From Nocardioides sp. Root190 (GTDB taxonomy: Bacteria; Actinomycetota; Actinomycetes; Propionibacteriales; Nocardioidaceae): a stretch of 64,000 nt of DNA. The stretch's first letter is position 1; every line of letters starts with the position of its first letter. The stretch spans positions 142 to 64,141 of the forward strand of contig NZ_LMIA01000011.1 of the NCBI RefSeq assembly GCF_001428565.1, in the 5' to 3' direction. Of the stretch, positions 26,046-59,904 are shown one piece after another. Both the position numbers and the translations under genes were made by a program. The notes under the pieces are model-generated. The model made no database searches. It was not told the origin of the DNA and was given only the letters and a program-made list of their open reading frames with translations.

Positions 26046-26570
26046 GTGAGCAACGACCTGTACGCCGTCACCGTCATCGGACACGACCGCCCCGGCATCA
26101 TCGCCGCCACCACGAACGGGCTGGCCGGTCTGGGTCTCAACATCGAGGACTCGACGATGACCCTGCTCCGCGGGCACTTCGCGATGATGCTGCTCTGCCG
26201 CGGTGCCGTCGACGGTGCCCAGGTGGAGAGCGCGCTGGCGTCGCTCGCAGGCGGGGGCGACCTCGACGTCGCCGTACGCCCCGTCACCGACGAGCCCACG
26301 CCCGCCGCCGGGGGCAGTGCCTGGGTGCTGACCGTCCACGGCGGTGACCGTCCCGGGATCGTGTCCGAGGTCGTCGGACAGGTCGCCGCGGCCGGCGGCA
26401 ACATCACCGACCTGACCACGCGGCTGGCCGGTGAGCTCTACCTGCTCGTCGCCGAGCTCGACCTGCCGGTCGGTGCCGACGTCGAGGCGGTCGATGGTGC
26501 GATCCGTGCTGCGGCCGAGCGGGTCGGCGTGAGGGCGACCCTGCGCCCCGCCGAGGCCGACGAGCTGTGA
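26046..26570 (+). CDS. two-ACT-domain protein (GcvR-like)
   Basis: A 174-residue protein made of two ACT domains: residues 1-80 (YAVTVIGHDRPGIIAATTNGLAGLGLNIEDSTMTLLRGHFAMMLLC) and 95-170 (WVLTVHGGDRPGIVSEVVGQVAAAGGNITDLTTRLAGELYLLVAEL). Each has the DRPGI loop that binds amino acids. The layout matches GcvR-type regulators or small amino-acid sensors that act through a partner protein. No DNA-binding domain is present. Starts at GTG; stop overlaps def (GTGA). Confidence 0.85.
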   Translation: MSNDLYAVTVIGHDRPGIIAATTNGLAGLGLNIEDSTMTLLRGHFAMMLLCRGAVDGAQVESALASLAGGGDLDVAVRPVTDEPTPAAGGSAWVLTVHGGDRPGIVSEVVGQVAAAGGNITDLTTRLAGELYLLVAELDLPVGADVEAVDGAIRAAAERVGVRATLRPAEADEL

Positions 26571-27133
26571 CCGCAGCGGAGGGGAGCGTGCGGGTCGCGG
26601 CCTGGACGGAGGCCGAGCTGGGCGTCGAGGGTGCGGTCCGCGAGGTCGTGCGCGCGCCCGAGGGCGTGCTCTCGGCGCGTGGTGCCGACATCGACCCGAC
26701 CTCGCCCGAGATGGTGCAGCTCGCCGCCGACCTCGTCGCCACGATGCGGGTGAGTCCCGGCTGCGTGGGCCTGGCCGCCAACCAGGTCGGCGTGGGCGTG
26801 CGGATGTTCTGCGTGGACGTGACCGAGCACCCCAAGGCGCGGACCCTGCACGGCACCTTCGTCCTGTGCAATGCGGAGGTCGTCGAGTCCAGTCGCAACG
26901 AGAAGGCCCGCGAGGGCTGCATGAGCGTGCCCGACTTCACCGGCGACGTGAAGCGGGCCTCCCGCCTGACCGTGCGGGGCCGGATCCCCGGCACCGGTGA
27001 GGAGGTCGAGTTCGCGACCGATGCCTTCGAGGCACGGGCGCTGCAGCACGAGATCGACCACACCGACGGCCTGTTGTTCCTGGACCGCGTCGCCGGCGCC
27101 CACGCGATCTATCCTCGCCAGACCTACCTGTGA
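26567..27133 (+). CDS. def: peptide deformylase
   Basis: A 188-residue metallo-enzyme that removes the formyl group from nascent N-terminal Met. Motif I is CVGLAANQVG (usual G-x-G-x-AA-x-Q with Cys before Val), motif II EGCMSVP supplies the metal Cys, and motif III QHEIDH the two His and catalytic Glu. The first 30 residues precede the core and are not family-like. Starts at GTG 26567 inside the ACT stop. A short GGGCC/GGCCC hairpin lies at 27149-27159 before the tRNA. Confidence 0.94.
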   Translation: MTAAEGSVRVAAWTEAELGVEGAVREVVRAPEGVLSARGADIDPTSPEMVQLAADLVATMRVSPGCVGLAANQVGVGVRMFCVDVTEHPKARTLHGTFVLCNAEVVESSRNEKAREGCMSVPDFTGDVKRASRLTVRGRIPGTGEEVEFATDAFEARALQHEIDHTDGLLFLDRVAGAHAIYPRQTYL

Positions 27134-27162: not shown

Positions 27163-27236
27163 GCCCCCGTATCCCAACCGGTAGAGGAAGCCGCCTTAAA
27201 AGCGGTCCAGTCTGGGTTCGAACCCCAGCGGGGGCA
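27163..27236 (+). tRNA. tRNA-like gene with anticodon UAA and short variable loop
   Basis: A 74-nt cloverleaf. Acceptor arm GCCCCCG/CGGGGGC is a perfect 7 bp, with discriminator A 27236 and no encoded CCA. The anticodon arm GCCGC/GCGGT encloses CTTAAAA, giving TAA at 27197-27199. The T arm CTGGG-TTCGAAC-CCCAG is perfect. T8, A14, G18-G19 and the 15-48 pair (A-T) are present. The variable loop is only CCAGT. UAA reads the leucine codon UUA, but bacterial tRNA-Leu should have a long variable arm. The D stem is irregular: C-G, a bulged A, then C-G, C-G, T-A. Which amino acid it receives is uncertain. Confidence 0.85.
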
Positions 27237-27269: not shown

Positions 27270-27306
27270 TTGACTTCAGGTCCACCTGAACCGGGAGAGT
27301 GGGGGC
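27270..27306 (+). promoter_or_regulatory. MerR-type promoter/operator, leaderless, for the methyltransferase
   Basis: A -35 TTGACT (27270-27275), a 19-bp spacer holding the inverted repeat TTCAGGT-CC-ACCTGAA (27275-27290), and a -10-like GAGAGT (27295-27300) 6 nt before ATG 27307. The over-long spacer with a centred dyad is the hallmark of promoters untwisted by MerR-family activators. No merR gene is found in this window, so the regulator is elsewhere. Confidence 0.75.
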
Positions 27307-27990
27307 ATGTCCCGTCACCACAGCGACCACGACCACTCCCTCGAAGCGCTCCGTGAGGCGCTCACCCCCGAGTTCTGGGACGAGCGCTACGCCGGCAGCG
27401 ACCGGGTCTGGAGCGGCAACCCCAACCAGCGACTCGTCGAGCAGGTCGCCGACCTGACGCCCGGGACCGCACTCGACGTGGCCTGTGGGGAGGGCGGCGA
27501 CGCGATCTGGCTCGCCGGTCAGGGCTGGGAGGTCACCGCCGTCGACGTCTCGGAGGTCGCGCTGGCGCGCGTCGCGGCGCACGCCGAGGAGGCCGGTGTC
27601 GGCGACCACCTGAAGCTCGGCTTCTACGACGCGCTGGCCGATCCGCGACCGGCCCACCGGCACACCTTCGACCTGGTCACCGTCAGCTTCCTGCACGTCC
27701 CGGTCGAGGACTTCCCGGCGATCTACCAGGGCATCGCGGAGGCCGTGGCGCCCGGTGGCCGGCTCCTCGTCACCGCCCACCACCCCCACGACGTCACCTC
27801 CGGTGCCCGCCACGACCACGGCCCCGGCCTCCTCTTCGAGCCCGACCGCGTGCTCGACGTGCTGGGTGCCGAGGCGCCCGACTCGGCCTGGGAGATCGAG
27901 GTCACCGACACCCCGACCCGGGTGCAGGCGAGTGACGATGGCCCGTTCGAGGTGCGGGACACGATCGTGCGCCTGCGTCGTCGGGCGTGA
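27307..27990 (+). CDS. class I SAM-dependent methyltransferase (TehB/thiopurine type)
   Basis: A 227-residue cytosolic methyltransferase. After a His-rich start (MSRHHSDHDHS), FWDERYAGSDRVWSGNPNQRLVEQV leads into motif I ALDVACGEGGDAIWLAGQGW, with EVTAVDVSEVAL as the acidic motif binding SAM. This layout is common in TehB-like and small-molecule-detoxifying methyltransferases. The MerR-type promoter in front suggests induction by a metal, redox or drug signal (inference). Substrate unknown. Confidence 0.88.
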   Translation: MSRHHSDHDHSLEALREALTPEFWDERYAGSDRVWSGNPNQRLVEQVADLTPGTALDVACGEGGDAIWLAGQGWEVTAVDVSEVALARVAAHAEEAGVGDHLKLGFYDALADPRPAHRHTFDLVTVSFLHVPVEDFPAIYQGIAEAVAPGGRLLVTAHHPHDVTSGARHDHGPGLLFEPDRVLDVLGAEAPDSAWEIEVTDTPTRVQASDDGPFEVRDTIVRLRRRA

Positions 27991-57381: not shown

Positions 57382-58574
57382 GCGCCGTGCACGTCGTCCT
57401 CCTGGTCTCGACGGGCGCTGCCTGGGAGGCGACGGCGCTGGCCGTGCTCCGGTCGCACCCATCGACCGTGGTGCTCAAGCGTTGCGTCGACGTGGCCGAC
57501 CTGATCGCGGCGGCGAGCACCGGTCAGGCCGACGTGGCGGTCCTGGGCGTCGAGCTCGCCGGCCTCGACCACGACGTCGTCGAGGAGCTCGGGCGGTACG
57601 CCGTGCGGGTGATCGGCGTGGCTGCCGACCCGGGCGCCGCCCAACCCCGCGCACAGCAGACCGGCGTCCGCACCGTGCTGGACGCGGCCCGGATCGAGGA
57701 GCTCGCAGAGGTGGTGGCGGCGTTGCCGGCCGGGACGACCGTCCCGGCTCCGCTGGAGGTCGCCCACGTGCCGCTGGGAGCTTCTGCGGGGCAGCCGGGG
57801 CGGGTGATCGCGGTCTGGGGCCCCGGGGGAGCGCCCGGCCGGACGACAGTGGCCTCGGGGCTCGCCGGTGAGCTGGCCCGACGGGGCCTGGACGCACTCC
57901 TGGTCGACGCCGACCCGCACGGCGGGGCGGTGGCCCAGCAGCTCGGGATCCTCGACGAGGTGTCCGGACTGCTGGCCGGCGCCCGACTCGTCGCTGCCGG
58001 CAGCCACGACGAGCGCTTCTCGACGATCCAGCGACGGCTCTCGGACCGCTTGCGCGTCATCACCGGGCTGCCGCGGCCCGACCGGTGGACCGAGGTCCGC
58101 CCGGGTGTGCTCGCGGCGTTGGCCGATCGCGGGCGCCGCGACTCCCAGGTGGTGCTCGACACCGGCTTCAGCATCGAGCCGGACCCGGCCACCGACCTGG
58201 GCCGACCGGGCCGCAACGACCTCACCCGCGAGGCGCTGGAGTCCTCCGACGAGCTGGTCCTCGTCGGGTCCGCCGACCCGGTCGGACTCGCCCGGCTCGC
58301 CCGGGCCGTCACCGAGGCCCACGACCTCGCCCCGGATCTCGTCCCGTGGATCGTGGTCAACCGGATGCGCCCGACCCTGGGCTGGCGGGAGGCCGACGTG
58401 GTCGCGATGCTCGCGGGGTTCGGGCCCAGCCGCGGCGTGTTCTTCCTGCCCGACGACCAACCGGCCGTCGACCGGGCCCTGGTCAGCGGTCGCCTGCTGG
58501 TGGAGTCGGGGGACGGCGCGCTGACGCGGGCGATCGGCGTCCTGCTCGACGCGATGGCCGGGTCTACGCGCTGA
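57378..58574 (+). CDS. CpaE/MinD-like protein with degenerate P-loop
   Basis: A 398-residue protein. Residues 1-115 are a CheY/receiver-like fold as in CpaE. The ATPase-like part (about 140-390) has WGPGGAPGRTTVASGLAGELARRGLDALLVDADPHGGAVAQQLG. Here the deviant Walker A reads PGGAPGRTT, with Arg for the catalytic Lys and one extra residue, so ATP hydrolysis may be impaired. Later WIVVNRMRP and LPDDQPAVDRAL are typical MinD-like. Likely a partner of the SAF protein in a surface or localisation system. Starts by overlapping the previous stop. Confidence 0.75.
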   Translation: MSAVHVVLLVSTGAAWEATALAVLRSHPSTVVLKRCVDVADLIAAASTGQADVAVLGVELAGLDHDVVEELGRYAVRVIGVAADPGAAQPRAQQTGVRTVLDAARIEELAEVVAALPAGTTVPAPLEVAHVPLGASAGQPGRVIAVWGPGGAPGRTTVASGLAGELARRGLDALLVDADPHGGAVAQQLGILDEVSGLLAGARLVAAGSHDERFSTIQRRLSDRLRVITGLPRPDRWTEVRPGVLAALADRGRRDSQVVLDTGFSIEPDPATDLGRPGRNDLTREALESSDELVLVGSADPVGLARLARAVTEAHDLAPDLVPWIVVNRMRPTLGWREADVVAMLAGFGPSRGVFFLPDDQPAVDRALVSGRLLVESGDGALTRAIGVLLDAMAGSTR

Positions 58575-59904
58575 ACAACAGCATCAGGCCGCCCGCGGTG
58601 AAGGACACCATCACGACCAGCAGGGGCAGCTGGCCGGTGATCTGGTCCCGCTTGGGCAGCAGCATCAGGGCGCGGTCGTGGGCGGCGACAGCGGCGACGA
58701 CATGGCCGATCACGACCGCGAGCACCTTGATCGAGGCGAGCACCGACGGGTGGTAGGAGAACCAGTACGACGGCTCGACGGCAGCCGTGCCGAACAGGTC
58801 CCACCCCTTGCCCAGAGGGTCGCTCGCCCGGGCCAGGGTCTGGGTGCCGACGTCGATGAAGAGCGTCAGGTAGTGGGCGAGGATGTAGCCGAGGATGATC
58901 GGCACGATCGAGTGGGCGAAGCGGCGCGGCAGCTCCTTGCGCGGCACCTCCCCGGCCGACGGCGTCAGCGCACTCCCCGCGGCGAACAGGAGGCCGGCGA
59001 TGAGCACGAAGGCCAGCAGGGCTCCGTTGTCGAGCCAGACCTTGCTGATGCTCGCGTCCTGGTAGGTCTTCACCCAGAAGGTCGACTCCCGGAACGAGTC
59101 GAAGGCGGTGCTGCCGAACAGCACGGCGACCACGGCGACCATGCCCGGCCGCGGCTCGATCGTCGCGAGGTTCGCGAGCGGGCTGCGCAGCACGAGTGCG
59201 CCCTCGTCGTTGCGCGCCCACGGCGACAGCTTCGCGATCAGCGACGAGTAGACCTCGAACGGGTCGGCGCGTTCATAGAAGCGGTTGCCGAACACGGCGC
59301 CACCCACGAGCATCACGCCGAGGTAGGCCGCGCACCAGAACCGGACCGAGCCGAGCTCGGTCGGGTAGGCGTAGGCGAGCTCGAGCCACACGAAGGCGTA
59401 GAGCCCCAGTGCCGCGGGCCAGTGGCCCAGGCGCTCGGGGTAGGCCACCAGGCCGACGTCGGGATCGCTGCCGGCGAGCCTGGCGATCGCGGCGTTCAGC
59501 GTGCGGACCGGGCTGATCGCGCGCCACACCGGGCCGAGCAGGGCGGAGGCGAAGACGAGTCCCACCCACCACCAGACGTAGAAGATCCCGAAGAAGGGGT
59601 TCGTGAGCGTGTCCTGGCCGGCCACGGCACACAGGATGGTGAAGCCCGCGAGCAGGACGCCGACGGTGCGCAGCACGACCGGGAACCATGCCGAGCGGGT
59701 CAGGCCGTCCAGCAGCGCGGGCGCCAGCCGCTCGCGGCGCGGGCCGTCGTCGTACCTCGGACGCTGCCAGGCCAGAACCAGGACGGTGAAGGAGATGACC
59801 AGCGCCGCCACGGCGCCGGAGACGGCGAGTCCGAGCGAGATGGGCAGGTCGGCCTGGCCGCCGATGCCGTGCGCCTCGACGGTGCCGTTCACGCCGGGGA
59901 TCAC
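58564..59904 (-). CDS. large polytopic membrane protein (fenitrothion-hydrolase-like annotation group)
   Basis: A 446-residue protein with about ten hydrophobic helices (GLAVSGAVAALVISFTVLVLAW, VLRTVGVLLAGFTILCAVAG, FGIFYVWWWVGLVFASALLGP...). No standard transporter signature is present. Similar actinobacterial proteins carry the name fenitrothion hydrolase, from a membrane enzyme reported elsewhere; that function is unproved here. Its start overlaps the lipoprotein gene (4-base ATGA), so the two are co-translated. The C-terminal stop overlaps the CpaE-like gene by 11 bases. Confidence 0.7.
   Translation of the reverse strand: MIPGVNGTVEAHGIGGQADLPISLGLAVSGAVAALVISFTVLVLAWQRPRYDDGPRRERLAPALLDGLTRSAWFPVVLRTVGVLLAGFTILCAVAGQDTLTNPFFGIFYVWWWVGLVFASALLGPVWRAISPVRTLNAAIARLAGSDPDVGLVAYPERLGHWPAALGLYAFVWLELAYAYPTELGSVRFWCAAYLGVMLVGGAVFGNRFYERADPFEVYSSLIAKLSPWARNDEGALVLRSPLANLATIEPRPGMVAVVAVLFGSTAFDSFRESTFWVKTYQDASISKVWLDNGALLAFVLIAGLLFAAGSALTPSAGEVPRKELPRRFAHSIVPIILGYILAHYLTLFIDVGTQTLARASDPLGKGWDLFGTAAVEPSYWFSYHPSVLASIKVLAVVIGHVVAAVAAHDRALMLLPKRDQITGQLPLLVVMVSFTAGGLMLLFSA

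What the first reader, a model, noticed from the sequence alone, without database searches (positions are those of the whole stretch)
27163..27236. Class I-shaped tRNA with a UAA anticodon
The sequence shows a near-perfect cloverleaf with anticodon UAA and a 5-nt variable loop. Known bacterial tRNA-Leu (UAA), including the Streptomyces bldA type, has a long variable arm that LeuRS recognises. UUA codons are very rare in such GC-rich genomes and act as switches in Streptomyces. A second, differently shaped UAA tRNA could read UUA, be charged with another amino acid, or work outside translation. The D stem with a bulged A is also odd. It abuts def and a MerR-type promoter.
Basis: partly seen in the sequence, partly recalled or inferred. 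Interest (0 to 1): 0.68.

Follow-up and report, generated by a model that had tools for sequence, protein, structure and literature searches.

The report
Short-armed leucine tRNA for UUA
This is the bacterium's own leucine tRNA for its rarest codon, UUA, built without the long arm that textbooks give bacterial leucine tRNAs; the same short form is common in related bacteria and also occurs in phages.

Summary
In detail: window 27163-27236 is an intact cloverleaf with anticodon UAA and a 5-nt variable loop. It is not a second or odd-job UAA tRNA. Among the genome's 53 distinct tRNAs it is the only UAA; the CAA (UUG) tRNA is equally short, the other leucine tRNAs are long-armed, and one full-length LeuRS was found. 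The "bulged A" is A22 of the normal tRNA-Leu D-arm. A73, A15-U48, G18G19 and A20a, the E. coli leucine identity set, are present.

The gene is conserved: 90 of 98 same-genus genomes (probably Nocardioides) have one short UAA match, none a long one. Across the class, 268 of 394 genomes match the short pattern and 66 the long-gap one, 51 of these in one Streptomyces-like family. In a complete low-GC relative whose only UAA tRNAs are short, well-conserved UUA columns align with Leu (22 of 24). UUA is the rarest codon in the genes sampled here (6 of 131,634).

Best explanation: the sole, ordinary tRNA-Leu(UAA), charged by the single LeuRS through A73 and D-loop contacts, the long arm being dispensable. 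Leucylation is inferred, not measured. The shape is scarcely discussed in papers I could search.

The parts
27163..27236 (+). tRNA-Leu(UAA), class I-shaped; G1 to A73, CCA not encoded (CGT follows)
27197..27199 (+). anticodon UAA (34-36)
27207..27211 (+). 5-nt variable loop CCAGU; U48 at 27211
27172..27188 (+). D-arm of tRNA-Leu type: 3-bp stem 27172-27174 with 27186-27188, A14 27176, A15 27177, G18G19 27180-27181, A20a 27183, unpaired C13 27175 and A22 27185
27236..27236 (+). discriminator A73, leucine identity element
   Evidence: role from PMC9976931 section 12
26567..27133 (+). def, peptide deformylase, immediate upstream neighbour; linked to the tRNA in part of the relatives

Best explanation
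It is the genome's only tRNA-Leu(UAA). It reads UUA, and by ordinary wobble can also read UUG, as leucine. Shown: intact cloverleaf, leucine identity nucleotides, sole UAA tRNA found, conservation with compensatory changes, a single full-length LeuRS. Inferred: that the LeuRS charges both its long-armed tRNA-Leu (GAG, CAG, UAG) and the two short ones (UAA, CAA) by contacting A73 and the D-loop/T-loop corner (A15-U48, G18G19, A20a) and not the variable arm; and that UUA supply matters for only a small set of auxiliary genes. In this lineage the long arm is a dispensable feature of tRNA-Leu.
For: Own genome: 53 distinct tRNAs called around all 51 Rfam hits, one UAA; a looser TTAA pattern adds none. 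One LeuRS over the family cut-off, 842 aa; the 5 other matches are below it. A15-U48 with A73 and a non-pairing 13-22: 7 of 7 own tRNA-Leu, 0 of 46 others; A15-U48 with A73 alone also occurs in 4 of the 46. U48 and A73, which no search pattern imposed: 30 of 30 in the genus BLAST set, 10 of 10 short and 19 of 19 long in the phylum set, 122 of 122 in named contigs. Genus: 90 of 98 genomes with one short match and no long one. Covariation: 99.4% of cells paired, 15 of 21 pairs changed on both sides, 141 two-sided cells against 34.6 in shuffles and at most 27 when slid. Class: 268 of 394 short, 66 of 394 long-gap. Codon meaning in the complete genome of Actinobacteria bacterium IMCC26103, whose 38 Rfam tRNAs include UAA short x2, CAA short, UAG and GAG long: 24 well-conserved UUA columns are Leu 22, Met 2. 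Literature: A73, A15-U48, G18G19, A20a essential and the long arm not correlated with leucylation in E. coli; human mt-tRNA-Leu(UUR) is charged without a long arm (PMC9976931, section 12 and passages).
Against: No charging, expression or proteomic datum exists for this tRNA. The codon test is in a relative, since own UUA codons are too few and in poorly conserved genes; over all 179 UUA columns there Leu is the majority residue in 89, not in all. By whole-tRNA identity (anticodon and D-loop left out) its nearest own tRNA is Lys(CUU) at 0.69, above Leu(CAA) at 0.66, so descent from another class I tRNA is possible. 5 of the 8 same-genus genomes without it use another UAA tRNA, and in the other 3 (84-89% complete) none was found.
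Confidence: 0.9

Rival explanations
1. It is a bldA-like developmental switch: a leucine tRNA whose late or limited supply gates the few UUA-containing genes.
For: UUA is the rarest sense codon sampled: 6 of 131,634 codons, in 5 of 383 ORFs; of these 5 proteins 3 have no Pfam family, one is a FAD-dependent oxidoreductase and one a PASTA protein. Conserved in the genus despite that rarity.
Against: It lies 29 nt behind def in what looks like one transcription unit, not at a dedicated regulated locus; no expression data; in low-GC relatives the same tRNA serves many UUA codons. Rarity follows from GC content alone.
Confidence: 0.2
2. It is charged with an amino acid other than leucine (missense or recoding tRNA).
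For: Class I shape; nearest own tRNA over the compared core is Lys(CUU).
Against: A73, A15-U48, A20a and the A22 D-arm are those of tRNA-Leu; no other UAA tRNA would then read UUA as Leu; UUA aligns with Leu in IMCC26103.
Confidence: 0.03
3. It is a tRNA pseudogene or a relic of a phage or integrative element.
For: Similar short tRNAs occur in phages; in relatives the gene is flanked by a partial 3' copy, as at an element's attachment site.
Against: Fully paired, conserved in 90 of 98 genus genomes with compensatory changes, def-linked in 13 of 30 and 21 of 30 fetched loci; no other UAA tRNA.
Confidence: 0.02

Closest known systems
Class II bacterial tRNA-Leu, including Streptomyces bldA tRNA-Leu(UAA)
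   Same: Anticodon UAA, A73, A14, A15-U48, G18G19, A20a, G21, A22, 3-bp D stem; same codon
   Different: 5-nt variable loop instead of 14-17 nt in the 19 long UAA tRNAs parsed; position 13 is C in all short ones, G or A in all 19 long UAA ones
Human mitochondrial tRNA-Leu(UUR) (PMC9976931, passage)
   Same: UUR leucine tRNA without a long variable arm; identity rests on A73 and A14
   Different: Mitochondrial, with a weak anticodon branch and its own LeuRS; here a well-paired bacterial tRNA that shares one LeuRS with long-armed tRNAs
Cluster-encoded tRNA-Leu(UAG) with short variable loop in Mycobacterium mucogenicum and M. phocaicum (PMC6582537, passages)
   Same: Short-armed bacterial tRNA-Leu
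   Different: There a second copy in a tRNA gene cluster beside a normal long UAG tRNA; here the only UAA tRNA, at a def locus shared by many relatives
Short tRNA-Leu of phages (Corynebacterium phage StAB CAA; Pseudomonas phage PE09 and Enterococcus phage 21C1 UAG; Microbacterium phage Big4 CAG, CAA, GAG)
   Same: Short variable loop in all six; StAB CAA, 21C1 UAG and Big4 CAA also share the CCCAA..AGAGG D-arm
   Different: Phage genes, other anticodons; PE09 UAG and Big4 CAG and GAG have differing D-arms

Membership tests
tRNA-Leu isoacceptor (functional sense) | Leucine identity nucleotides A73, A15-U48, G18G19, A20a | tested here: met
   list of elements from PMC9976931 section 12
tRNA-Leu isoacceptor (functional sense) | Reads a codon that means leucine | tested here: met
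   Anticodon UAA; UUA columns Leu 22 of 24 in IMCC26103, a relative, not the own genome
tRNA-Leu isoacceptor (functional sense) | Leucylated by LeuRS | not testable with these tools
   Single full-length LeuRS present; no charging data
Class II tRNA (long variable arm) | Variable region of 10 nt or more forming an arm | tested here: not met
   5 nt
Class II tRNA-Leu D-arm | 3-bp D stem with non-pairing 13-22 and A22 | tested here: met
   7 of 7 own Leu tRNAs
bldA-type regulatory tRNA | Sole reader of a very rare UUA codon | tested here: met
bldA-type regulatory tRNA | Growth-phase control of supply that gates UUA genes | not testable with these tools
   No expression data
bldA-type regulatory tRNA | Long-armed tRNA as in the Streptomyces-like family | tested here: not met
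tRNA pseudogene | Decayed stems, patchy conservation | tested here: not met

The most novel reading that the evidence does not exclude
Short-armed tRNA-Leu is an exchangeable module, shared with phages, that has repeatedly displaced class II tRNA-Leu in Actinomycetota: UUA and UUG in most sampled Actinomycetes, UAG in some members of this genus, and UAG, CAG and GAG in phages. Cellular LeuRS has come to ignore the arm. A short arm may protect these tRNAs from host or phage factors that grip the long arm, or give a separately tunable UUA supply.
Probability: 0.25. Interest if true: 0.65.

Novelty: new variant of a known kind. Interest (0 to 1): 0.45.

Why it matters
Textbooks and a 2023 identity review give all cytosolic tRNA-Leu a long variable arm. 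Here a whole bacterial class mostly reads UUA with a class I-shaped tRNA while the same LeuRS must charge long-armed ones. That is a natural experiment on what LeuRS recognises, warns against using variable-arm length to assign isotype or to call pseudogenes, and shows that the much-studied bldA tRNA has the minority shape in its own class.

Tried and rejected
A second, long-armed UAA tRNA in the own genome: looked for and not found. Loss of UUA decoding in the 8 same-genus genomes without a short UAA tRNA: 5 carry another UAA tRNA (L425 G011, L436 G071 and L438 G041 folded; G027 and G080 by the same matched string); in the other 3 (84-89% complete) none was found. Codon meaning in the own genome through PDB homologues of UUA-bearing proteins gave nothing usable: two had no hit and the third's hits did not cover the UUA site. 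One search's parser misplaced the 5' ends; its table was discarded and replaced. One search kept 29 of 30 phylum loci, 118 of 118 named, 114 of 120 viral and 7 of 8 CAA loci; the rest failed its stem filters. In one search I classified 146 rows of the capped listing after dropping 4 listed rows that looked like chance (G186 C15, G262 C2, G321 C1, G170 C66). In one search I judged 7 genomes as chance-only by eye (G382, G659, G592, G574, G445, G609, G503). Promoter and terminator scans found nothing.

Papers: 9 searches were answered. I found no paper that describes short tRNA-Leu(UAA) as the norm in Actinobacteria; closest are passages in PMC6582537 and PMC11541572. The library lacks most subscription papers, and tRNA databases were not searchable, so this is weak evidence of novelty. 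A paper on novel cloverleaf tRNAs (10.1093/nar/gkw898) was not held.

Full report
Observation. The tRNA at 27163-27236 is real. Its variable loop is CCAGU, five bases; A73 is followed by CGT, so CCA is added after transcription. ARAGORN made one call in 20 Markov shuffles of the window.

The own genome (5.01 Mb, 14 contigs, 100% complete). Rfam gives 51 tRNA hits. ARAGORN around all of them gives 53 distinct sequences. Leucine tRNAs are GAG x2, CAG x2 and UAG with variable regions of 13-17 nt, and CAA and UAA with 5 nt. There is no second UAA; a looser pattern (TTAA, 14-44 bases, GTTCRANYC) gave 6 matches, of which only this one is a UAA tRNA (read). LeuRS: one match over the cut-off, 842 aa, covering 1-842 of 843 profile positions; five further partial matches lie below it.

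The bulged A. The D-arm is U10 C11 C12 C13 A14 A15 CC G18 G19 U A20a G21 A22 G G A. Read with a 3-bp stem 10-25, 11-24, 12-23 and a non-pairing 13-22 it is the D-arm of tRNA-Leu: all 7 own Leu tRNAs have it, as do some Ser, Tyr, Cys and Arg tRNAs. The combination of non-pairing 13-22, A15-U48 and A73 is found in 7 of 7 Leu and 0 of 46 others; A15-U48 with A73 alone occurs in 4 of the 46 (Ala UGC, one Arg ACG, two Lys CUU). So the molecule has a class II-type D-arm with a class I variable loop.

Identity elements. A review of tRNA identity names A73, A15-U48, G18G19 and A20a as essential in E. coli tRNA-Leu and says that sequence and folding of the long arm did not correlate with leucylation; human mt-tRNA-Leu(UUR) is charged without a long arm (PMC9976931, section 12 read in full, other passages). 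The patterns used imposed 20a-22 (and 14-15 for the named and viral sets), but never U48 or A73. U48 and A73 are present in 30 of 30 short tRNAs of the genus BLAST set, 10 of 10 short and 19 of 19 long of the phylum set, 122 of 122 of the named set; in the viral set 117 of 121 short have A15-U48 and 121 of 121 A73.

Conservation. DNA search: 86 of 98 same-genus genomes. Pattern search: 90 of 98, one match each, all short. On 33 diverse sequences 99.4% of cells pair, 15 of 21 pairs change on both sides, 141 two-sided cells against 34.6 in shuffles. def lies within about 1.5 kb in 13 of 30 and 21 of 30 fetched genus loci (the two sets share some genomes) and in 4 named Nocardioides contigs (L174, L177, L191, L196), which is why I take the genus to be Nocardioides. 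In 36 of 38 such loci the gap between the end of the def alignment and the tRNA is at most 205 nt.

The genus genomes without it. A covariance model built from the short family was run on the 8. All 8 carry short-family Leu tRNAs with other anticodons: CAA in G004 (two), G011, G027, G041, G071, G075, and UAG in G004, G027, G041, G069, G080. Five of them (G011, G027, G041, G071, G080) have a different UAA tRNA with a 9-nt variable region (three folded, two by the same matched string). In G004, G069 and G075 (84-89% complete) no UAA tRNA was found. So even here the classical long UAA tRNA was not seen.

Class and phylum. Same order and nearer: 50 of 51 genomes short, 0 of 51 long. Class: 268 of 394 match the short pattern, 66 of 394 the long-gap pattern; 5 genomes match both, and in those the long-gap match looks like chance; 65 match neither, so their UAA tRNAs were not seen by these patterns. 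Of the 66, 7 look like chance only, 51 are one family (51 of 51 of its genomes, none short; Streptomyces-like by size and by my recall of bldA), and 8 lie elsewhere. In the phylum sample 181 of 248 genomes match; of 146 listed rows that I classified 57 are short (42-43 nt) and 89 long (50-54 nt), with nothing between. CAA tRNAs are also of both shapes: short in the own genome, long in the one same-family genome of that sample, and among 11 Streptomyces-like genomes 5 short and 2 long by eye, the rest without a clear match. Named genera with the short UAA form include Mycobacterium, Mycolicibacterium, Corynebacterium, Nocardia, Rhodococcus, Gordonia, Microbacterium, Brachybacterium, Amycolatopsis and Streptosporangium, plus a few non-actinobacterial contigs such as Cylindrospermum and a Rokubacteria MAG (capped at 118 stretches). 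The Rokubacteria MAG has a long UAA tRNA too.

What UUA means. In the own genome UUA is the rarest sense codon sampled: 6 of 131,634 codons, in 5 of 383 ORFs from 464 kb, with a simple ORF caller. These proteins were too poorly conserved to test. I therefore used Actinobacteria bacterium IMCC26103, a complete 1.46-Mb genome. Its 38 Rfam tRNAs include Leu UAA short x2, CAA short, UAG and GAG long, and no long UAA. With UUA masked, ORFs from 208 kb were aligned with high-GC actinobacterial loci: 24 well-conserved UUA columns are Leu 22 and Met 2; over all aligned residues UUA gives Leu 57.5%, against 50-70% for the CUN codons; over all 179 columns Leu is the majority residue in 89.

Mechanism. 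Shown: sole UAA tRNA found, leucine identity set, one LeuRS, conservation. Inferred: LeuRS charges short and long tRNA-Leu alike through A73 and the D-loop/T-loop corner; the tRNA is probably cotranscribed with def, since no promoter-like site was found between them (a consensus scan only). Not measured: charging, expression, decoding.

Phages. Short tRNA-Leu occur in at least 120 viral stretches (capped) and in deposited phages: StAB CAA, PE09 UAG, 21C1 UAG, an unverified faecal phage record UAA, Big4 CAG, CAA and GAG. Direction of transfer was not tested.

Known or not. PMC6582537 (passages) reports a cluster-borne tRNA-Leu(UAG) with a short variable loop in two mycobacteria as an exception. 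PMC11541572 (passages) says that M. tuberculosis tRNA-Leu-2, -3 and -5 have a long variable loop, which fits two short ones but does not say so. Nine answered paper searches found no fuller account. I rate it a new variant of a known kind.

Noticed in passing
L396 (G041), L398 (G027), L394 (G080), L389 (G069), L404 (G004): Short class I-shaped tRNA-Leu(UAG) of the same family in five same-genus genomes without a short UAA tRNA. Looks like anticodon change within the family; whether a long UAG tRNA remains was not checked.
   Followed up: partly
L425 (G011), L436 (G071), L438 (G041): Alternative tRNA-Leu(UAA) with a 9-nt variable region, between class I and class II.
   Followed up: partly
L521 251-324 and 13883-13930; L522 12180-12107 and 585-544: In two relatives the tRNA's 3' part is repeated 12-14 kb away. 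L521 holds a tyrosine integrase between the copies (PF00589, 1.1e-9); L522 holds an EcoRI-type methylase and a GmrSD-like gene, no integrase among the 4 ORFs tested. The tRNA seems to serve as an attachment site.
   Followed up: partly
G000:C1:688502-689800 (L064): Cluster of 7 divergent tRNAs near a contig end, among them tRNA-His with a 15-nt variable region and a 70-nt tRNA-Met; resembles the mobile tRNA arrays described in mycobacteria.
   Followed up: no
window 59433-59514: ARAGORN calls a tRNA-Gly(gcc) of 82 nt on the + strand that Rfam does not support; it lies inside a predicted minus-strand ORF (58564-59904) and is probably a false call.
   Followed up: partly
window 27275-27290: Inverted repeat TTCAGGT-N2-ACCTGAA after TTGAC, upstream of a methyltransferase gene (27307-27990, PF13649); a possible MerR-family operator.
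   Followed up: no
L530 401-478 (Mycobacterium riyadhense plasmid): tRNA resembling the short Leu family with an 8-nt anticodon loop, called tRNA-??? (caaa) by ARAGORN; perhaps a decayed or frameshift-type tRNA.
   Followed up: no
L528 (Microbacterium phage Big4, ON637770.1 83725-84594): Four consecutive tRNA-Leu genes (CAG, UAG, CAA, GAG), three of them short-armed.
   Followed up: partly
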